Part shown: positions 26,849 to 62,120 of the stretch, one piece after another
Numbering within the stretch: the stretch's first letter is position 1
How the letters are laid out: each line of letters opens with the position of its first letter
DNA from: Apostichopus japonicus
Taxonomy: Eukaryota; Echinodermata; Holothuroidea; Aspidochirotida; Stichopodidae
DNA: 64,000 nt
Direction: 5' to 3'
Assembly: GCF_037975245.1 (NCBI RefSeq)
Contig: NC_092572.1
Location: 21,812,489-21,876,488, forward strand
Position numbers and translations under genes: made by a program
Notes under the pieces: model-generated
What the model was told of the DNA's origin: nothing
Seen by the model: the letters and a program-made list of their open reading frames with translations, nothing else
Database searches by the model: none

Positions 26849-28730
26849 CTGCAATTAAGGAAGAAATAATAATAAGCAAATATTTATAGAGCGCTTTATG
26901 CAAAGGCCTCAAAGCGCTTAAACAAGTACACAAATATGCAAGTCAAATCACTGTAAATTTTTGGAATAAATGAGTTTTTAAGAGACGAAATGCTATGTAT
27001 AGAGACTCATGGAGAATACCAATCAGTGTGCAGGTTCAAAATCAGTAATATTTGTATGGCCACTGAACAAATTCAAGGGGAGAGGTATATAGTAAGGTCA
27101 ATAGTTCATCATACGTGCTTTTTCAAACCTTTTCACTGCTACCATGTACTATGTGGCGGCAATCAAACAAATCACAATCTTTTCACGTTACACACGTTAG
27201 GGCAATCTTATTGTTAGTTTTGTTCCTTGCTTAAAAAGATAAAACAAAATATGAACTTTGACAAGACATGATGGCTTTTGGCATTCGCATGGCGTTGAGT
27301 GTATTTGTATTTCTTTCAGTATTTCGCCATATTTTTAAAACCTTGCACGAACAAACTGTTGTTTATAATTGGTCACGCCAATTAGATCTTTACTTGACAG
27401 CAACGTTATCAGTACATTAGGCTTGTTTTTTTGTTTGTTTGAATAAAACCACACATTTAAACACCAAAATTAAACAAATGTGTGTGTGTTTATTAATGAA
27501 GGGAAAATAAAGGGTTAAATGACACAAACATCACAAAATGGACAAAAGGAGCACTTCCAATGTATGAAAAGGAGCACCTAGAATGCATTAAAAGGAGCAC
27601 CTCCAATGTATTAAAAGGAGCACCTCTAATGCATTAAAGGAGCACCTCTAATGGATTAAAAGGAGCACCTCCAATGTATTAAAAGGAGCACCTCTAATGC
27701 ATTAAAGGAGCACCTCTAATGTATTAAATGGAGCACTTCCAATGTATGAAAAGGAGCACCTAGAATGTATTAAAAGGAGCACCTCTAATGCATTAAAAGG
27801 AGAACCTCTAATGTATTAAAAGAAGCACCTCTAATGCATTAAAAGGAGCATCTCTAATGTATTAAAAGGAGCACCTCTAATGCATTAAAAGGACAACCTC
27901 TAATGTATTTAAGAGGAGCACCTGTAATGCATTAAAAGGAACACCTAGAATGCATTAACAGGAGCACCTCTAGAGCATTAAAAGGAGCACCTCTGTATTA
28001 AAAGGAGCCTCTGTATTAAAAGGAGCACCTCTAATGTATTAAAAGGAGCACCTCTAATGTATTAAAAGGAGCACTTGAAATGCATGCAGGAGCACCTGGA
28101 ATACATTAACAGGAGAACCTCTAATGTATTAAAAGGAGCACCTCTAATGCATTAAAAGGAGAACCTCTAATGTATTAAAATGAGCACCTGTAATGCATTA
28201 AAAGAAGCACTTCCAATGCATTAACAGGAGCACCTTTAGAGCATTAAAAGGAGCACCTCTAATGTATCAAATGAAGCACCTTTAATGTATTAAGAGTAGC
28301 ACCTCCAATGTATTAAAAGGATCACCTCTAATGTATTAAAAAGGAGCACCTCTGATGCATTAACAGGAGCACCTCTGATGCATTAGGAAGAGTCTCGTAC
28401 TTTTGAAGTTTTATAATTAAAGCGGGTGTTTATGTGTGTAAAGGAGAGGAGTGCTACGTACCCCTTTTCAGCCGGAATAAGGATAAGAATAGACACTTCA
28501 TTGGCTTTCATTTAATTTCGATTTGACAATGAATTTTTGATTGTTTAGAGTGTGTCAACGTGTTATACATGATCTCACATTACATACCTCGAATGCTCGT
28601 CCCTCACTGTCAGTTCGGCTGGTCTACCAAAGAATTGAGTTGTTCGAGAATTCAGGCCAATGTATAAAAGGTATATGAAAAGTATGCTACCTACTGCCAG
28701 AAGTATACATTTCCGGAATACACCCATCAT
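25796..28730 (-). CDS. Gene S: galactose-3-O-sulfotransferase-like, frameshifted
   Basis: Homologous to the Gal-3-O-sulfotransferase family (cerebroside sulfotransferase group), Golgi type II enzymes that move sulfate from PAPS to galactose on glycolipids or glycans. Exon 1 (28730-28588) gives a short cytoplasmic tail MMGVFRK and a membrane anchor (CILLAVGSILFIYLLYI), then stem; it ends in phase 2 at GTATGT. Exon 2 (26848-25796) opens after GCAG in phase 2. The 5'-phosphosulfate loop is KTFKTGSST (about residues 90-98), and the 3'-phosphate site is ILRAPIKTFYSF (about 171-182). The stretch LINEYYDESLIIL followed by MMCW is also typical of the family. At 26044-26046 the frame hits TAA right after RKWTAADSAL, while the next frame continues NHFNHTLWKKIQAYG. 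This fits one lost base, so it is a pseudogene, a null allele or a sequence error. The corrected length, about 398 residues, is normal for the family. Confidence 0.8.
26870..26930 (-). repeat. Retroposon 3' tail
   Basis: On the minus strand, AAGCGCTTTGAGG and GCGCTCTATAAATATTTG end in TTATTATTATT. Such GCGC-TATAAAT-(ATT)n ends are typical of degenerate SINE or LINE tails in invertebrates. It lies in the gene S intron beside exon 2. Confidence 0.45.
27535..28390. repeat. 23-bp minisatellite in the gene S intron
   Basis: About 37 copies of ATTAAAAGGAGCACCTCTAA followed by TGT or TGC, with common substitutions (AGAACCTC, CACTTCCAA). It fills half of the single intron of the sulfotransferase gene. 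Confidence 0.92.
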
Positions 28731-40120: not shown

Positions 40121-40169
40121 ATGGCATCTTTGGATCTTATACTAATATATCTTGCAGTTTTCTCTACAA
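40121..40169 (+). CDS. Gene B exon 1: signal peptide
   Basis: MASLDLILIYLAVFST is a short hydrophobic leader. The exon ends in phase 1 at GTAAGT. ATG context is CATACCATGG. The following intron contains the giant pyrimidine tract. Confidence 0.75.
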
Positions 40170-43100
40170 GTAAGTATCTCAAATTCAAGTCCAAGAACTA
40201 TCTACAACTTACGTATAATATATAATACACACCAAATGAATGATACAATAACGACTTTCAAACCTGAGTAAGGATTTGCATGAAAATCTATAATCGATAA
40301 CTATCTATTTTACCCTGCCCAATGCAAATATTAAAATATATGTATAAAATATTCACATTCACATTCTCTCCTCTCCTCTCCTCTCCTCTCCTCTCCTCTC
40401 CTCTCCTCTCCTCTCCTCTCCTCTCCTCTCCTCTCCTCTCCTCTCCTCTCCTCTCCTCTCCTCTCCTCTCCTCTCCTCTCCTCTCCTCTCCTCTCCTCTC
40501 CTCTCCTCTCCTCTCCTCTCCTCTCCTCTCCTCTCCTCTCCTCTCCTCTCCTCTCCTCTCCTCTCCTCTCCTCTCCTCTCCTCTCCTCTCCTCTCCTCTC
40601 CTCTCCTCTCCTCTCCTCTCCTCTCCTCTCCTCTCCTCTCCTCTCCTCTCCTCTCCTCTCCTCTCCTCTCCTCTCCTCTCCTCTCCTCTCCTCTCCTCTC
40701 CTCTCCTCTCCTCTCCTCTCCTCTCCTCTCCTCTCCTCTCCTCTCCTCTCCTCTCCTCTCCTCTCCTCTCCTCTCCTCTCCTCTCCTCTCCTCTCCTCTC
40801 CTCTCCTCTCCTCTCCTCTCCTCTCCTCTCCTCTCCTCTCCTCTCCTCTCCTCTCCTCTCCTCTCCTCTCCTCTCCTCTCCTCTCCTCTCCTCTCCTCTC
40901 CTCTCCTCTCCTCTCCTCTCCTCTCTATCCTTCTATTATATTCTCCACTCCTCTCTTCAAACAAAGGATGTTTTGTCACTAGCAAAGTCTTGCCGATGTT
41001 TGTCTACGAGAAAGAAGAAACAGCCCGCATTCCTTGCATTATAAGGGGGGAATCGCAGGCATACTTCTGGAAAGTTGGTACGATGTTTAATGAGAGCAAA
41101 CCTCTTGCTAGTTTCATCCATGGCAGCCCGGACAAATTTGCTAATGAAACTTACGGAAAACACACTGTACTTGGCGATGGTACGTTGGTTATATACCGAA
41201 TGACGTACACTGATGTGGGGAATTATCATTGTCGGGTGGTTACTAAATCGTCGGAATACTATGGCAGCGCCGCAGTATACATAAAAGGTAAACACTTTAG
41301 CTTATTAAAGCACATGTTAGGTTTGCTTATTTAACATAAACATGTCATTACCGATCATCTAAGGAGTGATCGGTCAAAGGACATGCATAACTTAGGTCCA
41401 GGCTAACAAATACCATATCCACTACTGTTTCAGCTTTATCAACTCAATATTAATTTTTTTTTACTTGCTGAACAGTACAAGCAATTGTTGTTGTGTAAGT
41501 ATTCCAAATATTTCCCATCACAATGCTAGTAAATAACAAGTTAAATTACCATTTCTTTCCTTTAGCGTTTCGCAATGGTTCCACGTTTGGAATCGACGAA
41601 TGTGAGTCAAATGCAAATTGCAGATTGCAAACAAAAGTTGACTCACTGACTTGTGAAGCTGCTTTCGTTTCGTCACAACTAAGGTTGAGATGGCTTAACA
41701 ATTCCATAGAACTTGAAAGCTCTGAAATAACAGTGCAAAATGATGACGAGTCATTTAACGTTTCCAGCACTTTTTCGGTTAACGATGACAGTCCTTCAGT
41801 ACTCATTTGCGAGGCTTACGGTGAAGCAATGGAGTCAAAGCATATACTTATTGAACTCATGGACGAAACAGAACGTAAGTACAGAGAGCATCATTTCACC
41901 GATTTAACTTCAATAAGAAAATTATAATTGGTTTCCGTTCGTAACTCAACCAACTTCCATGGCTATCCCGACATATTCAAAGTCAGTCGCTCAATGACAA
42001 ATTTACAAAAGGTAGGGGACCACCACTTGAATAGTACTATGCATACAACTGGGTAATTGATTTGATAACACCCAAGATTTACCGCCCGGTCACCTCTTGG
42101 TACTAGTCATTTTGCAAATATTTGTCTTTGCCTCTTGCAAGCTTTCTTCGCTATATCGCAGTAAGTTCTTAATAAATACATCAAATGTCCTTAATTGCAG
42201 TAAGTATTGTTGATTGTGTTATTATATCCATAAAGTTTCTTAGTTTCTATCCTTCAGATAACCCATGCGTCATGTTAAATTTACCTCCTTTAATGCAGGT
42301 CCAGTCACAGAATCCCATACATCTCCATGGATGCCAGTCAGCATCGTGTTAATCATTGTGGTGATCTGCATGGTGGTAGTTCTACTCATAAAATACAAAG
42401 GTTAGTGAATAAATTCATTAATAACGTATCAGTAGTTCCATGCTGGTATACATCGTTCCATGGCTTCTAGGATCACTTATTATCTGCATTTATAAACATC
42501 GAGACACCAACGCGAAACGTGTCGCTGACAATGTTGGATGTCACATAAACAAAGTGAATCTATACGGTTACAAGCATGTTTGCAAGTTCTTTGTTGCAAG
42601 TCCTTTGTTTGTTTGGGTTTTTGTTTGCTTGTTTGTGGGGGTGGCGTGGGGTGGGGGTGGTTCTTGTCAAGAGACTGGATCATATACAAATACTGTGCTC
42701 AACTACTTTGTAAATCTCAGGAACAAATATTTAGTTTGTTATTCTTTTCATTTTGTGTATGTTAACTTGTTTATGTAAAAGTTATGCGTACCAAAATGTC
42801 TAATTCCACTAGTTCTAGAAATGCAGCCAATGTTTGTACGAAACCTTTCATCTTTTCATGCATTTGTGGACACTTTACATTATGTCTTAATGTTAAAAAT
42901 TACCTACAATATACGGTATTTCTTCATAACCAGATCAATCTAAAAAGGAAAATAAAAATACGTAAGTTCATGATTTTTCATTATTTCCTGGAATATACCC
43001 AATTAAGTCGGCCTATCACACGTTAAACAGTGAATAATATGATACCTTAGCCATGCATTCGGTAAACGATTTGAAAGAATGTTCACCTGGGTTTACATAA

Positions 43101-46100
43101 CGAGGGAGTGACGAACAACTACCCATTGCGCACATAACCAAAGAGGATCCATCTTCTGTCTCACTTCAATAAATCGAAGACTGAACTTTAAATTAGCTAG
43201 AAATTAACTAGAATACGCTCTTGGACTAAAATTATTTTGCCATAACTAAAAAAATGAAATCGTATCACGCTACGAACGGAAAACTTGCTTCAAAAATATA
43301 TGATATTACTTTTGGTGTTTTTGTCGGAAAGTATAACTATACATGAAGCTCTACTTAAGTGTGAGACAAAAATAACTTCCAAAACAGTTTGTAGAAACAA
43401 ACGATTGTTTTTTATTTTATGTATCACTGCTTCTTATACGTGTACCTGTTTCTCTTATTTCTAACAATCCAAACAGAGGGGAAGAGACACAGCTACTAAA
43501 CGAGGTACTTGGAAACTATTTACTCGATTCTGATTTGTATTTACAAAGTCAAGAATACTCTTTTCTGTTTATTGTTTCCTATCATTCTCAAATTCTCAAG
43601 TAGTGTCATGATTATCATAAGTTTATTTACGTACACATGTCAGTGTGTGTTTGAATATAATTCAGGTTATCTTTGCTAAGCTTTTGAATTAAGAAACACA
43701 ATGTCTATAGATCGTTAAGCTGCGGTACTATGCTTTAGAGTCAAGTCACTTTCCCATTTGAAGAATAATTATAATTGTTGGTAAAAACGGACGAGTCCTC
43801 ATCCAGTACTTAAAGATTGTTCACTTGGGTCTTCGAAATGTTGATTGTAGAAAGTCCTTTATTTTAAGATAAATGAGGACTGTGGATGAATATCTACAAG
43901 CCTCATAAATTTTGAATGTGTACAAACCATGATAATTTCATGTCAATTGACCAATCTGACAAATGTAGCTGTCGACAATTGCACTAAAATTGATAATGAA
44001 TTATTGATAACACGTGACTCGTTGTAGGACGCATTCGTTTCATACTTGTGCTATATATTTCCCCGCAGACGCATAAACGTGAGATTGAACAATTAAGGGA
44101 ATCTTTAGATGTAAGTATAAATACCGGCTCTCTCTTTCTCCCTCTCTCTGTTTATGGAGTCATTGATAATGCGTTTTATACAAGAGTAGACTGGAAGATC
44201 AGTTTCGATAATTAGGAATTCCGAGTATGCGCACTGCTATACACCCATACAAAACAAATCACAATTTGCTTTCATCTATCGATGCAGCACCAACATTTAG
44301 GAAACGATCGAACTATACACAATCCAAGATCGAAACAATAACAGTAGAAATTAAGAAGCACATATATGATCTATTGGAAATTTTTACCAGAGTGCAGAAA
44401 TTAATTCCCATTTCACCAGTTACATAGATTCATTCCGTATTTACACCAAAATAAATTTGCAATTTATGCTTATTCCTTCATTCATGTTACTTTTGTATCG
44501 GCATGTTCAACGTTGGTGTTCTTGATGTTTTTTGTCAATAGACCTATGAGAAGGAAATCGACAATCGCCAGAAAAGCTTAAAGGTAACTAGCTCACACTC
44601 TGTTTTACTATATATTATTAACTTGACATTCAGTTTCAATCTGATACTTTCGAAATTATAGTTGATAGGTTTTTTTTTAAAGAATAGATTTGCAAGATAG
44701 TAAAGTGTACAAGGGCGTAGGAACCGGGGGGCTGGGTGGCGCCAGCCCCCCAGTGAAAAATATGGGGGGGGGGCGGAAGTATCATTCCGCCCCCCTCTTC
44801 GCAAGTCAGAAAACCCCTTTTTCATTTCTCAATAAATGATAACAACATTTTGGCAGAAAAAATCTCATTTGGAGCACCAAATTGCATCTAAGGCCAGGTG
44901 AAAATGCAAAATTATTTACCAACTGGAGTGGGTGTTGAAGTGTGCTATATTGCACCAAATTGCATCTGAGGCCACCTGGAAATGCAAAAAAATTCCAAAG
45001 GAGAGGCGGACACCCCCTCCCCCGGCCGGCCATCAGTGTTCAGCCCCCCCACTCAAAAGTACCTTCCTACGCCACTGAAAGTATACATTTTAAATGTTCG
45101 ATTGCTTCAGCTTAATGAAGATCCGTTATTACATATAACCATTTCAAGGTTTGTCTCAGTATAGTCTTAAATTATTAGATGTTCTCTGTACCCAACGACA
45201 TACAGAATTGACTTAAGTGTCACCTAATGGTATAAGTAGGTTAAGAGACGACAACAAAGTTTCGGACAGTGCACATCACTTTCTTGCAGAGATCACAACT
45301 TTCTATCCTTTCTTGTCTCTCCAGAGAGGTGTAAGAGTCCCTGGTGCTAAGTGTTTTTGCTAGTGCATTAGCATACGAGTTAGAAGATAAATAAACAGTA
45401 TAAAACATACCCGAATTTGAATGCCTTCGAGTACATTCTAAGCGCAAGTGATTGTGTATTTTTGTCGAAACGTGAGAGGTTTTTCAATAACAGCGTTAAT
45501 CCTTTAGGAAAGTCAATGAGCTGTTGCTTAATCTGAACATTCAAGGCGAACAATGTCTGAGTCTGTATTTCCTACAATATTTCAATGTATGCAATAAGGT
45601 ATATCAAAACAATTCCATATGATTTATTTATTAATGTTCTTAAATACTTTTTTTTTTAGATGTGATAACTTTCTCCAGTTCATCGTTAAAGTTACAAACC
45701 CAGACTGATCTGTTGATAAGCATCGTATCAATATTGGAATTACCGAAAACGAATGAAATTTATGGAATTACCGAAAAAGAATGAAATTTATTATAAAAAG
45801 TTGTCAATGCATTAATTCATAAACACACTTTACATTTCACGTTAAATTTAAGCATCAGTTTATCACGATTTGTGCAGCAGCAAAACAATTTGTTACATCC
45901 GTTCGGTAAATAATATAATATACTTAGACCTGCGAATTAGATATACAGAAAATAAATAAAAGGTGAATTATTCTTTTACAGAACGTGATTGCGGAGTTTG
46001 CCGAAAGAAGCAAACGAGCGAAGTCTCTTGCCATTAAGGTCAGTTGATATTTTAAGGCAAGAAAAATGCCATGTTAACATTAAAAGAGAAACCAACAACC

Positions 46101-46181
46101 TTTAATAACCGGTTATTATATATATATATGTTTATATATATATATGTTTATATATATATATATATTTATATATCTATATAT

Positions 46182-46217
<36 letters not shown>

Positions 46218-49200
46218 GAAATTGTTTGAAAATGAATATAATCGGTGGTCCCCAGCAAACACAAAAACGTTTTTAGAACGTTATTAAAACGTTTCGTCTT
46301 TTGTTTTGATAACGTTATTTGTGGTGTAATAAATATGTCACGAAAACGTTTTCAGGCTCTTATTTCAAAACATTTTTTCGTTAAAACATGAATATAACAT
46401 TAATATCTCATAAAAACGTTATGCCGACGTTTTTATAACACTACATTTAACGTTATAAAAACATATTTTAGAGGCTCTTTTAAAAATGTTATGATAACGT
46501 TTTGTGTTTGCTGGGTCATCCGTTGAACTTGCAATGACAACCAGCTTCTTCTGCTTTATCATATATATCTGCAGGACGAACCTCAAATCTTTTTACGTAT
46601 AAGAGGTGAACAACGACAGGAGAGTAAAGAAAGCATTGATCGTCGAAAAGGGGTTCTAAAAGAAATGGTAAGACTTATTTATGAATTGCAAATTTTACAT
46701 TCAGTACTTTACGAAGTTATTATAACCTACCTAAACTATGATCGATTTTGAAACTACAATGTTACAAAGTTAAAATACGAAAATAATCCAACCGCTACTT
46801 TAAAATATGTGGAACATTAATGCTTTGCATCTTTAACATTATCGACATAATTTCTAGAATTTACAATAATTTATAAAATATATCTTGTATGAAAATTGTT
46901 ATACAACGTATTTCATTTTGCTTAAAAAACGTAGAAAATGTATGTTGATGTGCATTTGCTTAAATAACATATATTATGCTATTTAGAAAGAGACCTATAA
47001 ATTGACCAGAATTTTCGAACCGGAAGAGGAACAAGACAAAGTCTTTAGAACTCTTGAAGATATTGTGCAGGTTAGTGAATGTAATTCATGTCCTTGGTTT
47101 ATAGCAACAACAAAAAACTACTGAAAACCAACGCAAAATGTTCTTCGAAAATAAAATGAACTATGTGAGAATCGTTCTTTGTTAATCTTTGTTAACATTT
47201 ACTAACTTACTGTCTAACTTATATAATTTCGGAATTTTGAACTTCTATAGAAACATAGCATAAACGAAGATTTTGTTTTCTTGTAGATAATAACTTTATA
47301 CTTATTCCGAGGATTGTACCGTATATTATTAACTGTATTTTCTGTTAGACTGATTGTAGCAGATCAAATCATATCAAATCACAAAATACATTTGCCGTTG
47401 CTGTCGTAGTTTTGAGATTAGTTGTATTAATATTTGGATTGCTTGGATTTGAATTGGTTATGCTAAGAAAGGTTTATTGGGTATGGCTGCTTGAAAACGT
47501 TTCCTATACATTTTCAGAGCGCTGTTGATGGAAAAATGATATGCATTGTTGCAATTGGTGCTCCAAAGAGTGGTAAGACTTTTACCATGTCAAACTACGA
47601 TTCGTCGGGAAAAGATAGTCAAGGAATTATTCCACGAGCTATATCCAAAATATTCCAGTGCGAGAAAGATTTACAGGAGAAGGGATTTGAGGTAAGAATG
47701 ATGTTTTTAAGTGAAAAATAAGATTTTCTTGGTATGTTTTAGAACATCATCAATCTTATTTCTCTCAATCCTTAGATATCACTTCATATCACTTTGTCAT
47801 AAGTCCCATAATACTAAATCACCTACTAATATATTATTAATTTTTACTATAATTAGCGACGCAACTATACTTGATTTTACTATATCGAGCAACTCTTCTC
47901 ATTATCTGTAAGGCAGAAGGTTGAGCAAAGTCAATAAACAAACGTATAGTATTTCCGTATGAATACAAATTTATATCAAAGAATATACCTCCATTCAAAT
48001 CGTTCATAATCGCTTTTAACATATATCAACACAGGTAAAGATAACAGCTACTCACCTTGGGACTTATTTAAAGGACGGCGAGGAATCCTTCAGGTTTTAC
48101 GAAATGAGCAACAGCGGATCAAAGGAGCAAAATGATATCATGGTGAAGGGGCTTAAGGTTGAAGGTGTATCATATCACATCACTTCTGAAGAACAGGTAA
48201 TACAGCTTAGTGCTTTTCACGTGACCCGCGGGATCCAAAACGCCACGACCGAACGGCACTATTCACCCATCCCATTCTAACAAAGAAAACTCAAGTCACG
48301 CGAGTAAAATATGCCCACCGACCTGCAGAGACAACCCCCACTCAAACATTTACAAAACCGCAAAAGGACGACATGCACGCAGCGAAACGAAACACCCCTC
48401 CCCTCCAGTACAAAAACCCTCTCCCCTCCTAATCCAACCATCCACGAAGCACAACAGCAAAACTTAGATCTCTCTCATATCTTATGGCAAAGTGGCAGAA
48501 TATTCAATGAAATCCCAATCCCTCCGGCTTCATTTAATCTGATATATAGCAATACATGTTATGAGTTTACATAAGTGAGATGAATGCTACACTTCCCTTT
48601 CTTTGGATGTTGTTGTATTAATAAAAGGTTCTGTTATATTTGAGATATGTAATCCTTGAATATTTTAACTGATCTCGTACTTAGGCTCTTGATCTACTGA
48701 AAGGTAGCCCTGTGGAAAACGAAGAGATGTCTGCTGGCACTAAACGTGCCGATGTATTTCAGATCACTGTGGATATTTCTATCAACCAAGAAAAAGTTTC
48801 AAAAGGTATGATAAGACATAATAAGAACTTTCCTTTGTACTATGTGTTTTGAAGTGTTATTTTTCTTGAACATTCACTGTTCGTTTCCTTTTGTTTCACT
48901 ATTATACTAGGTTTATGTTTCCTTTTTTTTCTCTAAATTTTCTTTCTAGTTCACTGTTGTTGCCGTGTTAGTTGTTTCACACCTTATTTTTTCCGCCTTA
49001 AAACACAATATCCTACATTAAAATGTATAAGAACGTGTTTCGTGTTAAAGATTCCCATTGGACATGAACACTTATCATTCATGAGCTTAAAGCGTTATTG
49101 ATCTGTACTTACAGTTCTTGATAAACAAAGTCACATACAATCCAATTGTCCTCAATTTAAGGTTAAGAAAACTGCTTACCAGAGTTAATAAACGTGTCAC

Positions 49201-50150
49201 TTATGTCACCCATTAACTAATAATAACATATGCCTCATGATGTTGTTAAACATTTAAGAAAACAAAGAGCATTTACTGTTCTAGAAAGAGGTGTGAACAC
49301 AACACTAAATACTCTAAAATTACTCAAGTTCGTCTGATATTGATTTATAAGATGTATTTTAGAAAATTTTGTCATTATTAAAATATTTATATAACCCCAT
49401 TAACACTTTCAAAAACTTGATATGTTCAATTCTTGTCATTATTCTATCGTACTCTAAAGGACACGGTTTTATAGACTAAATTGCATTCTTTTCTTCTCTT
49501 TTACCTTGGAAACTACTATCATTATTTCACTTTATATTCCAAAACCATTAAGATTTCAAGGATTCCTTTCTTTCAGGAATCTTATCTTTAGCAACATTCC
49601 ATGGAGCCGATGCAACAAAACAATTGATCAACAATGAAAAGAATAGCCCAGTGATGTCATTACTTACACCACTCATCACCGACAAGTCTTGTCGAATGTG
49701 AGTTAAGCTTCACACAACCAAGATTTTTTCAAACATTTTCTATAAAATGTTATCACTACTAATTTATATTTAGACAATTTTAGTTTTTAGTTTATGAATC
49801 ATATTTTAATTGATATGATGCCAGCTTTCATATGATATATTTCTGTCATTGTGCTCCATAGGGCAATGATCGTGACAATTACTTTGGATACATCACCAGA
49901 GACGCAGGGAACGCTTCATTATATTGAAAAGGTAAAGTACTTACAGAATTATACTCACATGTTTGTATGTCCTCCTTCAACATTATAAACTTATAACATC
50001 CTTCATTGTAAACAGGAATTTGGTTAACCCGCTTCTCGATACTATTCGTATAGAGTTAAACTAACAAATGCTTTTCTTGATGGCTACTTTAATTGAAGTT
50101 ATTAATTTGATTCACAGATGAGAGAAGCAAGTGAAAAGCGATGGGTGTAA
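40121..50150 (+). CDS. Gene B: Ig-domain transmembrane receptor with intracellular kinesin-like motor domain
   Basis: Seventeen exons join in phase: 40121-40169, 40988-41287, 41566-41874, 42299-42400, 42934-42961, 43477-43504, 44069-44110, 44542-44583, 45982-46038, 46575-46667, 46987-47070, 47518-47691, 48035-48196, 48685-48805, 49577-49697, 49862-49931, 50118-50150 (TAA). The sum is 1815 nt, or 604 residues. Layout: leader 1-17, Ig about 18-116, Ig 117-219, transmembrane 233-250, basic juxtamembrane 251-262, helical linker 264-319, kinesin motor homology 320-604. The P-loop GAPKSGKT (392-399) is kept. The switch I SSRSH and the switch II DLAGSE are replaced (AGTKRAD and TFHGAD), and the region of helix alpha-4 looks shortened. 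A linker before the motor is the kinesin-14 order. By inference this is a surface receptor carrying a non-hydrolysing nucleotide- or microtubule-binding domain. The main doubt is whether one transcript spans the two 28-bp exons. Confidence 0.72.
40365..40926 (+). repeat. Giant (CTCTC)n pyrimidine tract in gene B intron 1
   Basis: About 111 uninterrupted copies of a 5-bp all-pyrimidine unit on the sense strand, ending about 61 bp before the splice acceptor at 40986-40987. A pentamer has no stop in any frame, which creates the long SPLLS and GEERR frames; neither is a gene. Confidence 0.97.
40988..41287 (+). CDS. Gene B exon 2: V-type Ig domain
   Basis: Phase 1-1 exon starting after AGCAAAG. 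It contains ARIPCIIRG (B-strand cysteine), YFWKVG (core tryptophan), GTLVIYRMTYTDVGNYHC (E and F strands) and ends VYIK. An upstream AG (40981-40982) would give the wrong phase, so 40988 was chosen. Confidence 0.85.
41566..41874 (+). CDS. Gene B exon 3: second Ig domain
   Basis: Phase 1-1 exon. It contains DSLTCEAAF, the core tryptophan in LRWLNN, and SVLICEAYGE as the F-strand cysteine, which lacks the usual DxGxYxC. An extra cysteine pair occurs near the start (ECESNANC). It ends with a strong GTAAGT donor. Confidence 0.8.
42299..42400 (+). CDS. Gene B exon 4: transmembrane helix
   Basis: A phase 1-1, 102-bp exon encodes SPWMPVSIVLIIVVICMVVV, then LLIKYK. The hydrophobic run (residues 233-250) is followed by lysines, the expected inside-positive border. 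It is the counterpart of gene A exon 6. Confidence 0.85.
42934..46038 (+). CDS. Gene B exons 5-9: juxtamembrane and helical linker
   Basis: Exons 42934-42961 (phase 1-2, DQSKKENKN), 43477-43504 (phase 2-0, GEETQLLNE), 44069-44110 (THKREIEQLRESLD), 44542-44583 (TYEKEIDNRQKSLK) and 45982-46038 (NVIAEFAERSKRAKSLAIK) give about 66 charged, helix-favouring residues. The two 42-bp exons encode 14 residues each, exactly two heptads. The 1-2 exon after the transmembrane exon mirrors gene A exon 7. The first two exons are only 28 bp each and rest on splice consensus (GTAAGT at 42962) and phase alone. Confidence 0.6.
44710..45077. mobile_element. hAT-like MITE 3, in gene B intron
   Basis: The ends are CAAGGGCGTAGGAACC and CCTTCCTACGCCACTG (inverted). 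Flanking AAAGTGTA (44702-44709) and AAAGTATA (45078-45085) are an 8-bp target duplication with one mismatch, the hAT length. The interior contains two GCATCTRAGGCC repeats. It sits between two linker exons. Confidence 0.75.
46109..46216. repeat. (TA)n microsatellite
   Basis: TA runs broken by TGTTTA and TCTATA in the gene B intron before the motor exons. Confidence 0.9.
46251..46515. mobile_element. MITE with CCCAGCAAACA ends
   Basis: CCCAGCAAACACAAAAACG and CGTTTTGTGTTTGCTGGG are terminal inverted repeats. The interior repeats AAAACGTT and its complement many times. 265 bp, inside the gene B intron just before the exon that starts the motor domain. Confidence 0.85.
46575..50150 (+). CDS. 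Gene B exons 10-17: kinesin motor homology domain
   Basis: Eight exons encode 285 residues that follow a kinesin motor from end to end. QIFLRIRG matches beta-1 and YKLTRIFEPEEEQDKVF the FDxVFxPxxxQxxVF block. DGKMICIVAIGAPKSGKTFTM is the P-loop region, followed by GIIPRAISKIF. Exon 48035-48196 covers the central sheet and IMVKGLKVEGV, and the end reads MIVTITLDTSPETQGTLHYI. Ordinary motors have about 330-340 residues; the shortfall lies mostly where helix alpha-4 should be. The neck and linker precede the motor, as in kinesin-14 (KIFC, Kar3). The catalytic switches are lost, as in the known motor-homology proteins Vik1 and Cik1. Ends at TAA 50148-50150. Confidence 0.85.
47518..47691 (+). CDS. 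Gene B exon 12: P-loop exon
   Basis: A phase 0-0, 174-bp exon. GAPKSGKTFTM keeps every Walker A residue (GxxxxGKT) and the kinesin TFTM end. GIIPRA is a near-invariant kinesin motif. This exon alone identifies the family. Confidence 0.92.
48685..48805 (+). CDS. Gene B exon 14: degenerate switch I
   Basis: ALDLLKGSPVENEEMSAGTK, then RADVFQITV, aligns with the kinesin LLxxGxxxRxxxxTxxNxxSSRSHxIFxI stretch. The asparagine, both serines, the arginine and the histidine of NxxSSRSH are replaced, so the switch that orders Mg-ATP is not conserved. Confidence 0.8.
49577..49697 (+). CDS. Gene B exon 15: degenerate switch II and shortened alpha-4
   Basis: ILSLATFHGAD aligns with LxLVDLAGSE: Asp becomes Thr537, the glycine stays and Glu becomes Asp542. 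It runs almost directly into NSPVMSLLTPLI, the counterpart of NSKLTxLLxDSL. About 25 residues that normally form helix alpha-4, the main microtubule contact, are missing. Confidence 0.75.
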
Positions 50151-53100
50151 CCAAACATGCTCCGGGATTATCAAACTGAATCCAAGACAGCTTCCGGTTG
50201 AGAGATGTAATCAATTTGGAGATCTGGCATAGCAGCATTTCACCTGAAATACACTACCCTTTTCCAACGAATTCACCATCTTAGTGTTTGAGGGATGATA
50301 TATACCTCCCCATTAGACGTCGAAGAGTTGATTATAACATACTTGTATTCCAGAACTGTATTACATACTGTGTTGTAAATATTACCTCATGTTACCGGTT
50401 ACTTTTTCTGCTTAAATTGTTTTGATAAATTGTATCGTTTGTCATTAACAGTAGACTCTTTAATATTGCACAAATTACTAATTGCCGATTTCAAGAACAG
50501 TTTTGCTGCACTTAGAAAATTGTATCAAAGATTCAATCCTTCCATTTCTTAACTTTTTAATATATTGTTCGTATCAAAATTTCATTTAATCGTCCGGACT
50601 TTACTTCTATCAAGATGTTAAGAACCCTTTATTCAGACATGTGTAAATTAATAGATCGCTGAATACTGAACTAACATATACGTAATGTATATTGATGCAT
50701 ATATATATTCATATTATAAGTGTCTAGTAAGTTAAAATGCACTAGATGACATGATATGGTTTGGATTGTAAATTAGTTCTAGATAAAATAAGTTATCGAA
50801 TTGTCTTCGGCTGCCTCTCAAGAACTTTTCGTTGACATTACAGACATATATATGTCCACTGCTATCGTTGATTTCTAATATAGGAGACAGGTAAATGCCA
50901 TAAACGCAGTGTTTTACTAAATATGGGACTGTTAACAACTGGCACCGTATTTTAATGGTATCATGGAAAGCGGAAATTAGAGAATGAGCCAACCTTCTTT
51001 AGTACATTAGTACATTTAGTTAAGTCATTTCACACAAGTTGTGAAGGACACGTTCGCCACGAAGAGAGCAGGTTTAGAGGTTAAAAAATATCAAAATGCA
51101 TAATGTTTTGACGTGATACCAGTCACTAAGACCATTTGCTTCCTAACGTATAGCAACTTATGTTACTACGAATATAGTTTTTGAATGAAATGTCCTTTAT
51201 GACTTTTGCACATAGGCGAATTGGGTCTTGTATAATCTCTTCCCTACACTTGCTAAGATACATATCAAATTTCAAAAACGTATAACTTCTTGTTTCATTT
51301 TTCTACTTCTTTCTTTCTTTTGTATTGTACAATGCTTTTGCTACCAGCTATGTACTCTCTGCAACCTCTTTGTCAGGCATAACTCCCTGTATACATGTTC
51401 TGGAGTTTGCATTTAAGACGAATATTGTCATTTTATCAACCTTAGAATGAGTTAATGGGAGAGCTCTGTATTCGTGGCAGCAGTGCAAAGAGAAGTTCGG
51501 ATTCAGATGGAGGCGAATTTTCTGTCTGTCTCTTGTATGTGGACGGCCAGCCTGCTAGGGGGTTAGTGCGTCTGCTGGTGGACCGATCATGCATTATATT
51601 GTGGGTTAGGTTGATTGGATTGCGCGGGTGGAGAAAGTGATGTTGAGTGATTCTTTTATTGTGATTTTTGTATTCTTCATTAATCTATTTGGAGTTTGTA
51701 GTGACATTATCTTAACTAGCTTGTATATGCCATCGCGAATAGCTATGTCATTGGCTACTTTTAGGTAAACATGTTAGCGTCAAATCTAATCGTAAACGCT
51801 GTGTAGAAAGGGTTCTCCTAGCGTACACCACATTGCTTAAAGTGGATGGAGGACTTTGATTAAGTAACTGTAGTTATTGTACGATCTAAGATATAATAAA
51901 GTTCATACTCTGGAAATGTTACGCGAAGGTAAAGTGTAGGCTGAGTTTAATAGCGATGAGTCATGGGTTGTACGTAACACCGCTCGGCTATACCTTAACA
52001 TTTAATTCATAAACATTTTACTATATCTAGGCTAAACCTATCTTTACTGATGGTAAACATCTATTTGATAACATTGACCAACCAAAATGACACACAGGGC
52101 ACCTATCACATAAACTAACGTGAGTATGTGTATGGCTTGTGTTAGCGAAAATTTGATATGCCTTCGACATGAGCAATTACTGGCCACAGGTGTGTAGATT
52201 AGCCTAAGATTGTATCGATCGCCAGCAGGGAAGCATACTGTTTTCATTGTGTTCTTTGTGTTCTTATTCTGTTGTTCAAATAATGTTGTCTGAAATGAAT
52301 ATACTGTCATTATTCTTTACTTCTTAAACAACATGATTTCATTGTCAACATTTACGATCTTCAACTTCCTTTATTGCATCTTCTGTTGTTGTTGAAGCAG
52401 AGAACTTTCGTCGCTGTGAAGTTACGTTAATAAATAGTTGTTGCATTTTAGCTTGTTGAAGCAACACGTGATACAAGTGATAAGACTTGATCCACAGAGA
52501 GGGGGTACGCGGCCCGTAGGCAGAACATAGAGCCCTTCACCGCATTGTGTCTGTATAGTTAAGCCCATTGAAAGGGGAGGGGGGGGGGGACATTTCCAGT
52601 TAGGAGGCACCGGAAAATATGGTTTGAGAATAAATGTATTCTCATGTTCATAATATACTTAAAAACAGAATATTTGAAAAAGGAGCCTATTCAGATAATT
52701 CTTTCCGAGGACAGACACTACGCTCCTGGTTGTAGAATATGACTACAGTGGTATTGCCACACACAAAACATCTTTCATACGGATACATAACAAATCGTTG
52801 CCGTTTAGCATCTTAGCATCAGACTTAATTTACAAACACTCTTTCAGCGTTTAGTCAGTATTGTGATGTTCTTCTATGTATTTACTGTACTTCTGTGGGT
52901 GATAACACACTCACAGCCCAAATTTAAAGTACCTCTCCTCAGAGTCGAAAGAAAAACTTCTCAGTACTTCTTCCTTACCAATGAACCAAAAGTATGATAG
53001 CATTTTATAACAGAACACAATATTGTGTGCACGAAATACGCTGTGGAAAGACGTAAGAAGAATATAAGATACATTTTGGGATTAGATATTCACCGTGACC

Positions 53101-55439: not shown

Positions 55440-56040
55440 ATCCTCCTTGATGACTATTCCGGTGTGTTTGAATTTTCTACGACTGTATAGGAATTGTTAT
55501 CTGATTTGAAAAGAGTTAACCTTGATAATGACCCCCTTCGATCGTCCATCAGATCTCGCCCCGACTCTGTGACACCGATCGATGTGCTCTGTCTGAAGGT
55601 TTACCTGAAGTTTCTCCTTGGCCATGGTCACAATTTTGTGAGTGACGTTTTCTCCTAAGGTCTCAATTATACTGAACACTCTGACACAATTTCGTCGGGA
55701 GTATTGTTCTATATCATTTACTTTATGCCGAAGAGTGTCGCTGTCTGTTTGGCAAGCCGTCATGGTTGTTCTGAGTTGATCGTTCTCTAATTTAAGATTA
55801 TCAGTTTTGTTTTCCAAATCAAAGATACGCCCTTCATGTTTTTCCAGTTCTTTCTCTATTTGATTGAGTCGTTTCTGTATGACACTTTGGATGGTAACAT
55901 TAATTACATCCTTAAATGGTTTTCCTGAAAAGAGCTCGTTAATGACTTCGGTAACAATTTCTCCAGTTTGTGAGTCCGGATTTTGGCGAGTGGTACGCTT
56001 TGCTGCAGATGTAGTTGTGGCCTTATTGATATAGCTGCTT
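55440..56040 (-). mobile_element. LINE relic, ORF1 protein
   Basis: The minus-strand frame encodes a coiled-coil part (IQKRLNQIEKELEKHEGR, LENKTDNLKLENDQL) and then DIEQYSRRNCVRVFSI and EHIDRCHRVGA. This order, coiled coil then an RRM-like RNA-binding domain, is that of LINE ORF1 proteins. The frame stays open from about 56040 to 55497. 5' end not defined. Confidence 0.85.
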
Positions 56041-57396: not shown

Positions 57397-60300
57397 GTAA
57401 GTTAATTAATTATTCTTTACCAATTAGACTCAGGTTTCTCAATGCTTTACCAGTAATAACCTTTAAATCCCGTTAATGTAACATACTAAAATGACGACTG
57501 AAATTATGTAGGAATAGTAGCAACATATTCGAGGCAGCAAAACATTCAAAATATATCTGATAAGTTGTCGTAATTGTGTTTAAATGCTCTTGTGTTTTAA
57601 CTAAAATTACAAGCAGTGTACAAATGGGAAATTATTAATATTTTTAAAACTGTACCACTGATACTCTTTACTATAAATTAAATGTAATTTCCAGCATATA
57701 TAACAATGCCAATGTAGCAGTTTATGTCAATCGAATATGAAATAAGTAGCCTATCTGGACTAGCGTTAAAAGTTAATGTTGAGCTTGATCAGTAACCTCT
57801 TTACTGATACGAGGACCCAGACAGGGTGTAAGACACATGCTAAATAGAGACAAAGAACTCAACTGGATTGGCATATAATAAAACGTGTAATGTACAAACC
57901 GATATATAAAGGAATTCGAATCTTGGGCTCAAACGAATCATATCATACACAATCATGTACTTATTAAATTAATTAAACTGGCATCGTGTCTTACTGTTAC
58001 GTTTAATTATTACTTGATGGTTAAGGTACCCCTAAGTGATGTTATCGTCGGTGGTCGGTGTTCCTGCAGAGGTTGATCCGTTCAGTGGCTAAGTGGCTCC
58101 AGCGGTATCGTTAGGATTCAGATTCTTGAACAACTCCAGATAGAAGTTGTGTTGCATTATTCCCTTTATTTGCTATATACTTTATACTGTGTGGCGAGAC
58201 CGATATAACTATATTGATCCACACGTTGTTTCCAAAAAGTTAAATGCGTTCCTTTCAGGCAAGCTCTAAACTATGATACACTGTATGAACAAAAGGCTGG
58301 TGAGAAATATAATTTATGTTCTATTCAGAACTACAATATGGGTCTCATTCGGTATCTAGGTTTAGTCCCAAAATTTCTGTGATTGAGAATAAGCATCTCA
58401 CAGAATGTTGGTTACTTTCAAACCTACAACTTTGAGCACCGTAAATTTGGGTTTTAACACTTTTAATCTTTAGCTAATATCGAATAATGGGTAAACTTCT
58501 TTGAGTATGATACTTTCTTACTCTGCTTGAACTTGTTGTTCGTCTAATACATTAATACCGGTTATTACTTTCACAAAACTATCTTTGTTGGGTTGCTGCA
58601 GTTAAATGGCTTGAAACAAGATGTGTCGTCATTTGTAATAGTCTAATGTATACTGCAGGTATCCTATCAGATTTGAAGTAAAGTTCTAGCAGATTTTGCT
58701 GAGTTGAGTACTATGACAAAAATACTATCAAAGTCATGTGCAACAAAGCAATGGCTTATCCAGTCTGCAGTTTGAAAATGAAAAAAAAACCCTCGTCCTT
58801 CAGCATTTTAACAACAATTTTGTTTTTGAAGCGCAATCGGTGATCAGTGAATCTAAAATTACCCAACTTGGGGACACAGCCGAACTTGAATGCGTTATTG
58901 ACATTTCAAGGACCTTGTACACAATCATTTGGAAAAGAAATGACGAAGATATCATCAGATTGGATTCACCTACAACAACCGTCGAAAAAGACAATTTTGA
59001 GCTCGCATTAGTGAATGAACAGTCTACTTCCTGGTTAAAGTTAAGGACGACTTCATTTCCTGATGCTGGACTATATGTATGCCTAACGTATTATGAAAGT
59101 GGAAGCAATGAAAAGCAATCCATACATCTCCAAGTACAAGGCTAGTACATTGATTAAATTTTATAATATCTAACGAGAGTAACCTGTTTTTATACTGCAA
59201 CTACCCAGTACATCTATATTTAGATTTTTCCACTTCTTCCAAATTGATTGTCTGTAGCAATGCTGCTGCTTTTGTTTCAAGTAGAAATTTTAGCTCATTT
59301 GTAAGAACTGTACCCAAAATATCATTTGTTCGTCATCGTGTGTAAATACACAAGTAAACTATTATGGATCTAATCGATAAAATTGGCAAATCGGAATCAA
59401 ATTATCTTGCCTGAGACTTTACATATGTATTAGGAATGAACTCGAAAATGCAAGGTGCATCTTTTTGACTGCAATTGCGGCGTCACCGCCTTTGATCGGA
59501 TATGAACACAAACTGTCAAAAACTTTTCATTTATGGTTTGCACTTTCTCTTCTTTCATACAGCACAGCCTAACATAACAAATATCCGAAACACATACACA
59601 GAAGGAGAGGTTGTTACAGCAGAATGTTGTGTAGAATTTGCATTGGCACCAGACCAAACCAAGATAATATGGTATATTAACGAGACACGACTCAACCATC
59701 AAACGGTTGACACAAATGACTCAACCATTTCATCCTTAACACACACAGTCTGCAGACAGACTTTGTTCCGTGTCCACAAGGGACACAATAACGTGACTCT
59801 GCTCTGCCTAGTTAACAACGTCCTTAACCTCACCAGCGCCTCTTCGTTACACGTGACATGTAAGTATACCAGAAAAAAACTAGGAATCAATTATTTATCA
59901 TCGTAACGTCAGTAAACTGCATCTAATGATTGCGTTCACTGTCTTCTTTCGTATTTCCCCACCGCCTCCACTTCTTTTTCGTCGCATTGTGTCATAATTC
60001 ACTCGCGATGCCCATTGTTAGATGCCTTGCATGTTACATGATTGGTGATCTGTGTCAAGGTGGGATTCTAAAATTCCAAGGAAACAAACACACCAATCAA
60101 CACCATTTTCTTTGGGTCAGAATATGCTCATGTTTTCAAACTTCCTTACAGACAACATACTTGCATTACTTTTGATTATCGTTAGTACTTCATTATCTGA
60201 TATGCTGATCCCAGTTGTCCCAACCCCATCCAGAGGGAATATAGACTTATCAATTGACTGAATGAACTTTTCTTCAACAGATCCATCGAGTGTTGAACTT

Positions 60301-62120
60301 ACCTTTTCAAGTCTTTTACACAAAGGAAATATATTATTAACCGAAGAACACAACGACGTCCACATTGAGTGTGTATCAGACGGAAATCCGGAACCTACCG
60401 TTACACTGCTGAAGAAGGTTAATAGGAAGTGGCTGAAGCTAGATCAGTCACCTGACAAACTACCGGCAGAAAGAGGTCAAGTAAAGTGGGTTTACATCTT
60501 TGAAAACGTGACCGAGGAATTTACAGGCGACTACAAGTGTGTTGCGTCTAATAATCATGAAGCCGTTGCAATCAGCGAAGGATTCATTTTCATCTTCGGT
60601 AAACGTTGCATCTTTCTTTTTTTTAGTTCTGTTGACCTTAACTATGAAATTTTCCTCTAATACGGATATCGTTTTCACCAAATGATATATGTACGTTTGA
60701 AGTAGTGGTTTTAACATGCTTACTTCTTGAGTTACAGTCTTTACCTCCAATTAAGTGATACGCATGATACAACCCTAGCATCGTCAAACATTCATCGGGA
60801 TCACATAATTATTTCTGCGTGCCATCGAGGGAATATACAAAATTGTTTTGAGGCACTGATAAATTTTAATTAATGCGAGAAAAGATATCCCAACAAATAC
60901 AGAAAAGCCGGAAAAAATGTGATTTGACATGATGAGTTCTTACGTATAATCAAAGGAATTTGACAGAAGTATATGAAATTCTTCACAAGTATAAAAAACA
61001 GCACACACTAAACCGTATCACTTGAAATAAGAAATACTGTTAATTTACAGGTGGCAATGATGACTTCATAACGCAGACAAACGCCATCGGGGATTCTGTA
61101 CAAGTAGACTGCAGGAGTAACTTTACCGAACTCGGCATTATTTCGATGTGGTTCTTCGAGAATAATTTGTTAGTCAAACCACTACGTCAAGGCTCGAATC
61201 ACATACAAGACTCTCGATATACACTCACGCTCTCGGATGATGGGGAAAAATCCAGGTTGGAAATTACCAGTATTTCATACAGTGACGCAGGAATGTACTT
61301 TTGCGTTCTATCAACAGGATCTAAGTTTTGGAAAGAAGATTTTCTTCTTCAGACTTACGGTAATGTTAATAAGGTGGTCATAAAGGTGTTTCCCAATGGA
61401 TTGATAAAACCAGAGTTTTCTTATGCCCAAAAACCGTTTCATTTGCATTTCAAAATAATGTCCCTTCTCAAAAAGAGCAAGAATAACATCCATAAAGGCA
61501 AAAGGTGCACAAAGGATTGCACATTGTAGCGACACAAATATTTTATTACCCTCGGGGGGAGGAGGATCGAAGACAAACTCGAATTTTTAAGTGTTCCTTT
61601 GCATACATTAAATGTGCCATTATTTTTCCTTTATTTTTATTTTTTAATGGAAAGTCGAATTAATTATCATTTTTAATGAGGAATTTCGTGCATTGTTATA
61701 TGACTGATTATCATTTCTTGATCCATGAATATATTATTCATGGAAATTACAGAAAATACATAGAATCAATGTACCATCGTTATATGTTGCTAAACCAGTG
61801 TTTTTCAATTATTATTGTTTTGGCAGGTAAGCCTGAGCTAACAACAAACAGAACCATCGTTGCGAACGACAAGATTACAGCAGTATGTTGCGTTCAGGTT
61901 GCGCCTGCACCGAAATTGGAATTTTCTTGGGCTTTAGACTACAACACGTTTTCTCCAAAAGACGTAATGAATGAATTTCACGCTACAAATGATAACAATG
62001 GTACAATTCAATGTCAGGTGGTAGCCTTTCCAACTGATCGTAAACACAATGATAAGGATTTACTTTGTGCCGTCCAAGACGACCACAGAGCTGTATCCAA
62101 AGCGACCTTAAATGTGTGGT
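57345..62120 (+). CDS. Gene C: multi-Ig receptor, 3' end not found
   Basis: Same plan as gene A. Exons 57345-57396 (leader MKHLTLWSFVTLLLSC), 58832-59140, 59563-59859, 60281-60598, 61051-61359 and 61827-62120 are all joined in phase 1. Together they give 526 residues and five Ig domains: V, CC, DGNP, V, CC. The series is a V-CC-DGNP module that starts a second time, so a third-type domain, a transmembrane exon and a tail are expected further on. None is recognisable between 62121 and 64000. The donor of the first Ig exon is GC rather than GT. An upstream in-frame ATG at 57222 would put 41 polar residues before the leader, so 57345 is preferred. Role: a cell-surface or secreted receptor in the same cluster as A and B; ligand unknown. 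Confidence 0.78.
58832..59140 (+). CDS. Gene C exon 2: V-type Ig domain with GC donor
   Basis: The exon starts after TTTTTGAAG; this is the only acceptor nearby that gives phase 1 and sits just before the domain. It contains AELECVID, the core tryptophan in TIIWKRND, WLKLRTTSF and DAGLYVCLTYY, and ends LQVQ. The exon end CAAG is followed by GCTAGT where gene A has GTTAGT. Confidence 0.82.
59563..59859 (+). CDS. Gene C exon 3: CC-type Ig domain
   Basis: Phase 1-1 exon. VVTAECCVEFA has the adjacent cysteines, IIWYIN the core tryptophan and VTLLCLVNN the F-strand cysteine. It contains several N-glycosylation sites (NET, NDS, NVT, NLT). Paralogous to gene A exon 3 and gene C exon 6. Confidence 0.88.
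60281..60598 (+). CDS. Gene C exon 4: DGNP-type Ig domain
   Basis: Phase 1-1 exon. VHIECVSDGNPEPTVTLL is the C2/I-set start, and FTGDYKCVASNN is the F-strand signature. It parallels gene A exon 4, and the WLKLDQSP stretch matches WKILNHEP there. Confidence 0.88.
61051..61359 (+). CDS. Gene C exon 5: second V-type Ig domain
   Basis: Phase 1-1 exon. It contains SVQVDCRSNF, the core tryptophan in SMWFFENN, RLEITSISYSDAGMYFCVLS and the end LLQTY. It opens a second copy of the V-CC-DGNP module. Confidence 0.88.
61827..62120 (+). CDS. Gene C exon 6: second CC-type Ig domain
   Basis: Phase 1-1 exon. ITAVCCVQVAPAP has the adjacent cysteines, FSWALD the core tryptophan, and DLLCAVQDD the F-strand cysteine. 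Donor GTGAGT. Confidence 0.87.

What the first reader, a model, noticed from the sequence alone, without database searches (positions are those of the whole stretch)
40121..50150. Ig receptor fused through the membrane to a kinesin-like motor domain
Sequence shows a phase-consistent chain of 17 exons: leader, two Ig domains, transmembrane helix, helical linker and a full kinesin motor homology region, 604 codons with no stop. Ig receptors normally carry tyrosine tails, kinase or phosphatase domains; I know of no described family with a kinesin motor behind the membrane. It could tie a surface recognition event to microtubules or cargo. This is the best candidate for an undescribed system in the window.
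Basis: partly seen in the sequence, partly recalled or inferred. Interest (0 to 1): 0.95.

Follow-up and report, generated by a model that had tools for sequence, protein, structure and literature searches.

The report
Ig receptor with degenerate kinesin tail
A sea cucumber gene appears to join an immunoglobulin-type cell-surface receptor, through the membrane, to a worn-down copy of a kinesin motor domain; a relative in another annotated sea cucumber genome shows the same join, but no transcript was seen here and the motor has lost parts it needs to walk.

Summary
The 17-exon chain is real: all 16 introns are GT-AG, phases match, and it reads 611 aa plus stop. It gives two Ig-type domains (the second by pattern only), one transmembrane helix, a helical linker and kinesin motor homology (Pfam Kinesin E 1.2e-20). 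A kinesin-only profile finds exons 11 and 12 with no splicing assumed. The fusion is not unique to this window: the annotated Apostichopus japonicus protein BSL78_02070 has the same Ig-Ig-TM-linker-motor order and is 92% identical where aligned. Of 119 hits of the motor search scanned with Pfam, it is the only one with Ig families among the 25 of 33 families shown. Best reading: an Ig receptor with a kinesin-14-like pseudokinesin tail, probably a non-catalytic scaffold or tether, not a walking motor. Against it: no transcript evidence; an A. japonicus paralogue is annotated as ending in the linker without a motor; between the species exons 8-17 differ more (32 of 230 residues) than exons 2-4 (6 of 235).

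The parts
40121..40169 (+). exon 1: start codon and leader
   Evidence: GT donor, phase 0 to 1; aligned with the leader of A. japonicus P0009, 5 of 17 residues identical
40967..41287 (+). exon 2: Ig domain 1
   Evidence: Pfam ig / Ig_3 match at residues 31-114; 96 of 98 aligned residues identical to P0001
41566..41874 (+). exon 3: second Ig-like domain (no Pfam match of its own)
   Evidence: 101 of 103 residues identical to P0001, 88 of 103 to P0009; Ig-like by its Cys/Trp pattern (by eye) and by weak PDB hits (E 0.01 and above) to CEACAM and Fab light chains that run on to residue 200-209
42299..42400 (+). exon 4: stalk and single transmembrane helix
   Evidence: hydropathy peak residues 239-257; reading through its donor gives a stop after one residue
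42934..42961 (+). exon 5: 28-nt linker exon, phase 1 to 2
   Evidence: 8 of 9 residues identical to P0001, 7 of 9 to P0009
43477..43504 (+). exon 6: 28-nt linker exon, phase 2 to 0
   Evidence: 7 of 7 aligned residues identical to P0001, 8 of 9 to P0009
44069..44110 (+). exon 7: helical linker
   Evidence: 9 of 14 residues identical to P0009; 12 of 14 residues have no counterpart in the P0001 model
44542..44583 (+). exon 8: helical linker
   Evidence: 7 of 11 aligned residues identical to P0001
45982..46038 (+). exon 9: neck-like helix before the motor
   Evidence: 17 of 19 residues identical to P0001
46575..46667 (+). exon 10: equivalent of the first kinesin strand (IFLRIRG)
   Evidence: aligned with IRVFCRIRP of kinesin-14; absent from the P0001 model
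46987..47070 (+). exon 11: kinesin motor homology
   Evidence: found by a kinesin profile with no splicing assumed, E 0.0011
47518..47691 (+). exon 12: kinesin motor homology with P-loop GAPKSGKT at 47557-47580
   Evidence: found by a kinesin profile with no splicing assumed, E 1.5e-17; 54 of 58 residues identical to P0001
48035..48196 (+). exon 13: kinesin motor homology
   Evidence: aligned with kinesins; absent from the P0001 model
48685..48805 (+). exon 14: kinesin motor homology, switch I remnant SAGTKRAD
49577..49697 (+). exon 15: kinesin motor homology, switch II remnant TFHGAD, then the 33-residue deletion
49862..49931 (+). exon 16: end of motor homology (IVTI strand, last helix)
50118..50150 (+). 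exon 17: last coding exon and stop
   Evidence: 8 of 10 residues identical to P0001

Best explanation
This is one gene of a sea cucumber close to Apostichopus japonicus that encodes a single-pass Ig receptor whose cytosolic tail is a short helical linker plus a degenerate, kinesin-14-like motor homology domain (a pseudokinesin). It probably arose when Ig-TM exons took the place of the N-terminal tail of a kinesin-14, a class whose motor sits at the C-terminus. Shown: the exon chain, the homologies, the same order in A. japonicus, loss of switch I and II and of 33 residues, and a retained P-loop. Inferred: the protein is made as one chain; the linker pairs two receptors or pairs the receptor with a real kinesin-14; the tail does not hydrolyse ATP productively; it works as a scaffold or passive link to microtubules or motor complexes at the membrane, in the manner of the non-catalytic kinesin-14 heads Cik1/Vik1 or the ATPase-less KIF26A that damps Ret signalling. 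In-frame exons 10 and 13, absent from the A. japonicus model, and a motor-less paralogue suggest alternative tails.
For: Phase-consistent chain; Pfam hits; best PDB sequence relatives are kinesin-14 (KIFC1 E 3e-14, Ncd, Kar3); profile hits on exons 11 and 12 without splicing; A. japonicus BSL78_02070 has the same order, 92% identity where aligned, and by its tag (recalled) comes from gene models of which 92.73% had transcriptome support (PMC5638244, passages; support for this particular model not seen); linker exons 5 and 6 are shared by window, P0001 and P0009, and exon 7 by window and P0009; no in-frame ATG from the TM exon to residue 357; neutral simulation of exons 8-17 gives a mean of 2.7 stops by 86% identity (none in 6% of 400 runs) and 5.9 by 70% (none in 0 of 200 runs), so an open frame in a motor this far from ordinary kinesins points to long constraint; shared loss of switch motifs and a 51- versus 84-87-residue spacing in both species; non-catalytic kinesin precedents (passages).
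Against: No transcript or protein evidence was available. P0001 is a computed gene model: it starts inside Ig1 with no leader, lacks exons 10 and 13 and nearly all of exon 7, so it is not full proof of splicing. P0009, an A. japonicus paralogue, ends by reading on past exon 7 without a motor. Exons 8-17 (198 of 230 aligned residues identical) differ more than exons 2-4 (229 of 235), and 6% of neutral runs at this distance show no stop, so the recent history of the motor could be near neutral. The motor tree does not settle the kinesin-14 origin. The structure models are poor overall (mean pLDDT 49.5 and 39.6).
Confidence: 0.66

Rival explanations
1. Two neighbouring units: a short Ig receptor that ends in or after the linker (alternative polyadenylation or intron retention), followed by a decaying kinesin remnant that gene predictors wrongly join to it.
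For: P0009 ends by reading on past the exon-7 donor; reading through exon 4 gives a stop after one residue, and AATAAA sequences lie in introns 4 and 7 among others; exons 8-17 differ more between species than exons 2-4; 6% of neutral runs stay free of stops at this distance.
Against: Ten exons on the motor side with intact splice sites and no stop in the window; P0001 joins Ig and motor in another genome; the linker exons are shared with P0009, so they belong to the receptor; no motor-only model of this type among the 120 listed of 168 hits of the motor search, where after P0001 (E 4.5e-153) the next hit is E 3.1e-16; no start codon for a separate motor before residue 357.
Confidence: 0.22
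2. A working membrane-anchored motor that walks on microtubules and drags the receptor.
For: P-loop GAPKSGKT retained in both species; kinesin homology significant.
Against: Switch I (NxxSSR) and switch II (DxxGxE), given as active-site motifs of kinesins (PMC5076506, passages), are lost; of 77 other hits with at least 200 residues after the P-loop, 74 keep a switch I pattern and 73 a switch II pattern. 33 residues between switch II and the last helix are missing, where alpha4 and loop 12 of ordinary kinesins align (element names recalled).
Confidence: 0.04
3. The tail is a nucleotide-binding domain reused for signalling with no link to microtubules (this overlaps with the best explanation, differing only in the role of the tail).
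For: The P-loop exon 12 is among the better conserved motor exons between the species, 54 of 58, while the part that aligns with the microtubule-binding segment is cut.
Against: The Q and T of the kinesin P-loop consensus are changed to A and P; nothing is known about partners.
Confidence: 0.3

Closest known systems
Apostichopus japonicus BSL78_02070 (P0001)
   Same: Same order Ig-Ig-TM-linker-motor, 92% identical where aligned, same P-loop, same lost switches, same 51-residue spacing
   Different: The model lacks the leader, exons 10 and 13 and nearly all of exon 7, and ends with 10 more residues, which the window's DNA shows in another frame (the last by eye)
Apostichopus japonicus uncharacterized protein P0009
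   Same: Same leader, Ig-Ig-TM and linker exons 5-7
   Different: 68% identical; annotated without a motor, ends by reading past exon 7
Kinesin-14 (KIFC1, Ncd, Kar3, KCBP)
   Same: C-terminal motor after a helical stalk (recalled); nearest PDB relatives by sequence and by Foldseek (Kar3, KIFC1, KCBP, on a weak model made from a kinesin-rich alignment)
   Different: No membrane span or Ig domains; intact switches and alpha4
Cik1/Vik1, non-catalytic kinesin-14 partners of yeast Kar3
   Same: Motor homology domain without catalysis, partner of a kinesin-14 (PMC4338441, passages)
   Different: No receptor part; soluble fungal proteins (recalled); no sequence test made here
KIF26A
   Same: Divergent kinesin without ATPase that acts on receptor (GDNF-Ret) signalling (PMC7862435, passages)
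   Different: Another kinesin class (N-11 group), binds microtubules, acts through Grb2, not fused to a receptor; no sequence test made here

Membership tests
Ig superfamily receptor (type I) | leader, Ig domain(s), single TM helix | tested here: met
   Pfam ig above cut-off for domain 1; hydropathy peak at 239-257. Leader judged by eye and by alignment with P0009, no signal-peptide program run. Domain 2 has no Pfam match of its own.
Ig superfamily receptor (type I) | known signalling tail (tyrosine motifs, kinase, phosphatase) | tested here: not met
   No kinase or phosphatase in the Pfam scan; no ITIM- or ITAM-like match in the tail (its single match lies in the leader)
Kinesin superfamily | motor domain homology | tested here: met
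   PF00225 E 1.2e-20; profile hits without splicing
Kinesin superfamily | P-loop GxxxxGK[TS] | tested here: met
   GAPKSGKT in window and P0001
Kinesin superfamily | switch I NxxSSR and switch II DxxGxE | tested here: not met
   No match after the P-loop in window (205 residues) or P0001 (161 residues). Control: of 77 other hits with at least 200 residues after the P-loop, 74 have the switch I pattern, 73 the switch II pattern, 3 neither (P0052, P0057, P0065)
Kinesin superfamily | alpha4 / loop 12 microtubule-binding segment | tested here: not met
   Switch II to last helix 51 residues in window and P0001 versus 84-87 in the five kinesins measured; alignment
Kinesin-14 subfamily | placement in a motor tree | tested here: inconclusive
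   Long shared branch, outside the 17 reference rows; best PDB hits are kinesin-14
Kinesin-14 subfamily | motor at the C-terminus behind a helical stalk | tested here: met
   Order in the gene; the coiled coil itself was not tested with a predictor
Non-catalytic kinesins (Cik1/Vik1, KIF26A type) | microtubule binding without ATPase | not testable with these tools
   needs biochemistry

The most novel reading that the evidence does not exclude
A receptor lineage in sea cucumbers in which outside recognition is wired in one polypeptide to a kinesin-derived pseudo-motor, so that ligand binding or clustering directly tethers the membrane to microtubules or recruits a true kinesin-14 partner; alternative splicing (exons 7, 10, 13) and motor-less paralogues set whether the receptor is coupled.
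Probability: 0.3. Interest if true: 0.88.

Novelty: new variant of a known kind. Interest (0 to 1): 0.66.

Why it matters
I know of no described Ig receptor with a kinesin-derived tail (recall), and the paper searches named in the report found none in the held library. If the protein is made as one chain, it shows that a motor domain was taken over as a receptor tail, and it gives a ready test of whether pseudokinesins can act as direct membrane-to-microtubule links. A. japonicus is a farmed animal (recalled; its genome paper's abstract calls it economically important), so transcripts should be obtainable.

Tried and rejected
Chance or gene-finder artefact: rejected for the homologies, because a kinesin-only profile found exons 11 and 12 at adjacent profile positions with no splicing assumed, and Pfam agrees. 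A second copy in the window: none seen, tblastn of the protein at E up to 0.01 gave only its own exons. Retrocopied kinesin: disfavoured, since exons 8-17 are parted by nine introns. Vertebrate relatives named si:dkey-96l17.6 looked promising as possible Ig-kinesin proteins, but the six fish and shark proteins scanned show no Ig domain in Pfam. Other Ig-kinesin proteins: in a Pfam scan of 119 of the 120 listed hits (P0007 was not included; 48 of 168 hits were never listed), only P0001 had Ig families among the 25 of 33 families shown; eight families were not shown. Subfamily tree: inconclusive. Structure: two AlphaFold2 runs on P0001, both weak (mean pLDDT 49.5 and 39.6). In the first, blocks of the motor core reach 82-87 while the P-loop itself lies in blocks of 72 and 52. 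Only the first was searched: the best Foldseek matches are kinesin-14 motors, with TM-scores of 0.29-0.36 by query length in the 50 rows shown, from a model guided by kinesins. The window's own genome could not be searched: nine identical requests were unanswered. Paper searches gave nothing on the fusion (0, 0, 0, 2 and 5 papers listed, the last two sets judged by title and abstract start, not opened). One search, for the gene-model source, gave 0.

Full report
OBSERVATION. I rebuilt the gene on the + strand from 40121 to 50150. Seventeen exons with 16 GT-AG introns give 1836 nt, 611 codons plus a stop (in one search exon 15 was first ended one base too far and the frame broke; it ends at 49697, before a GT seen, and the frame is open). 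Exons 2-4 have the phase-1 borders typical of Ig exons (typical by recall), and exons 7-13 are phase 0 on both sides. The protein has a leader, Ig domain 1 (Pfam ig E 1.3e-4, above its cut-off; Ig_3 E 3.9e-5, below its cut-off), a second Ig-like exon without its own Pfam match, a strong hydrophobic stretch at about 239-257, a helical linker and kinesin homology at 341-550 (PF00225 E 1.2e-20; PF16796 E 4.1e-19).

IS IT CHANCE? A profile from 16 kinesins, excluding both sea cucumber proteins, was run on all 2095 reading frames of at least 20 aa in the window. It lists the exon-12 frame (E 1.5e-17) and the exon-11 frame (E 0.0011), lying next to each other in the profile (128-190 and 102-128); one further frame is E 0.65. 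The 16 had been found by searching with this protein, so they are not a blind choice; the Pfam model is. By tblastn, 9 of 9 kinesins hit exon 12 (E 1.9e-12 to 0.002).

RELATIVES. A search with residues 250-611 gave 8 proteins at E <= 1e-3 among 3434 candidates; the best is A. japonicus BSL78_02070, 495 aa, E 9.8e-112, the next E 5.3e-8. A search with the two-sequence alignment of the whole protein gave 7, adding A. japonicus P0009, 332 aa, E 8.2e-147. A search with the motor part alone gave 168, of which 120 were listed: P0001 at 4.5e-153, then other kinesins from 3.1e-16. Two searches scored only the 7996 and 7989 candidates sharing most words, and all three limit candidate length, so absence elsewhere is not proven. 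Of 119 of the 120 listed proteins scanned with Pfam, the four Ig families shown occur in one member each, P0001, which has all four; 25 of 33 families were shown. The window therefore most likely comes from a sea cucumber close to A. japonicus (inference; the source is not given).

THE SAME FUSION IN A SECOND GENOME. P0001 begins inside Ig1 and runs through Ig2, TM, linker exons 5 and 6, and the motor to the end; Pfam finds Kinesin (E 1e-19) and ig (E 4.3e-5) in it. Per exon it is identical in 229 of 235 aligned residues for exons 2-4, 15 of 18 for exons 5-7 (12 of the 14 exon-7 residues are gaps), and 198 of 230 for exons 8-17; exons 10 and 13 are absent. The A. japonicus models of PMC5638244 were built by EVM from homology, ab initio and RNA-seq evidence, and 28,144 of 30,350 were said to be supported by transcriptome data (passages). 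Whether this one was is not seen, and that the BSL78 tag belongs to that paper is recalled. Kinesin and immunoglobulin do not occur in its main text.

COUNTER-EVIDENCE. P0009 shares leader, Ig-Ig-TM and linker exons 5-7, then reads on after SLD with VSNT..., which resembles the start of intron 7 in the window (VSINT...). So at least one paralogue is annotated as a short receptor without a motor. This fits either a short isoform or a paralogue that lost the motor. In the window, reading past exon 4 stops after one residue, and AATAAA occurs in introns 4 and 7 among others, so a short form is possible here as well. On the other side, no in-frame ATG exists between the TM exon and residue 357, so a separate motor gene would need a further first exon or would lose its first strand.

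A PSEUDO-MOTOR. Aligned with kinesins, the P-loop is GAPKSGKT (mostly GQTGSGKT there), switch I has become SAGTKRAD (kinesins NxxSSRSH) and switch II TFHGAD (kinesins DLAGSE). As a control, of 77 other hits with at least 200 residues after the P-loop, 74 keep NxxSSR-like and 73 DxxGxE, and 3 (P0052, P0057, P0065, unnamed metagenome proteins) have neither; window and P0001 have neither. In a first, stricter count over all 130 hits, fragments included, 129 had the P-loop, 86 the switch I and 82 the switch II pattern. From switch II to the last helix there are 51 residues in both sea cucumber proteins against 84, 84, 84, 87 and 85 in P0015, P0030, P0035, P0010 and P0013. The missing stretch is where alpha4 and loop 12 align; those names are recalled, the motif consensus is in PMC5076506 (passages). 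In a tree the two sea cucumber motors sit together on a very long branch outside 17 reference kinesins, so the subfamily is not settled by tree; sequence search against PDB puts KIFC1, Ncd and Kar3 (kinesin-14) first.

CONSTRAINT. Neutral substitution of the window's exons 8-17 produces a mean of 2.7 stops by 86% identity (none in 6% of 400 runs), 5.9 by 70% (none in 0 of 200 runs), 8.8 by 50% (none in 0 of 100) and 10.8 by 33% (none in 0 of 60). The simulation has no indels and one simple rate scheme. It argues that the frame was kept over most of the motor's divergence, but does not exclude near-neutral change since the split from A. japonicus.

HOW IT MAY WORK. Shown: anatomy, homology, shared order, lost switches. 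Inferred: one polypeptide, cytosolic tail, linker pairing, no productive ATPase. Precedents make a non-catalytic role plausible: Cik1/Vik1 have a motor homology domain with a microtubule-binding site but without the elements to bind and hydrolyse ATP, and serve as a foothold for Kar3 (PMC4338441, passages); KIF26A binds microtubules, lacks ATPase and suppresses GDNF-Ret signalling through Grb2 (PMC7862435, passages). A kinesin-14 normally has its tail in front and its motor at the end (abstract start of PMC9474454, gives the N-terminal tail); here the receptor takes the place of that tail. I rate a made fusion with a non-catalytic tail at 0.66, two separate units at 0.22, and a walking motor at 0.04; the nucleotide-signalling rival (0.3) overlaps with the first.

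NOVELTY. In the held library (5.39 million open papers), searches for combinations of kinesin, immunoglobulin, transmembrane and echinoderm or sea cucumber terms, for the locus tag, and for transmembrane-kinesin phrases found no description (the 2 and 5 papers listed were judged by title and abstract start only). The holothuroid genome preprint PMC13228809 has no mention of kinesin, immunoglobulin, Ig-like or fusion in its main text (term search). The two parts are known kinds; the combination appears undescribed in what was searched.

Noticed in passing
about 40363-40925: A run of CCTCT repeats of more than 500 bases in intron 1, just before the first Ig exon.
   Followed up: no
10095-14219 and 58717-62134, + strand: Two further clusters of Ig-domain exons flank the gene; Pfam Ig-type matches at E up to 0.01 in 7 of the 8 reading frames tested there. 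Their tails were not examined.
   Followed up: partly
26044-26883, - strand: Reading frame with galactose-3-O-sulfotransferase homology (PF06990 E 3e-38).
   Followed up: partly
50138-50180: Window and P0001 differ in frame at the C-terminus: the window stops at 50150, while the sequence after it resembles the last residues of P0001 in another frame (read by eye).
   Followed up: partly
window exons 2-4 versus 8-17: Between the two species the Ig and membrane exons are far more alike (229 of 235) than exons 8-17 (198 of 230), the reverse of the fast outer part one expects of an immune receptor (expectation recalled).
   Followed up: partly
proteins P0052, P0057, P0065 (related proteins, not in the window): Unnamed metagenome proteins of 303-407 aa with kinesin homology and a P-loop but neither switch pattern: possible pseudokinesins elsewhere.
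   Followed up: no
15932-16431 and 5757-6259: Short-period repeats that keep long frames open on one or both strands (by eye).
   Followed up: no
55497-56039, - strand: Coiled-coil-like frame that looks like a LINE ORF1 remnant (judged by eye).
   Followed up: no
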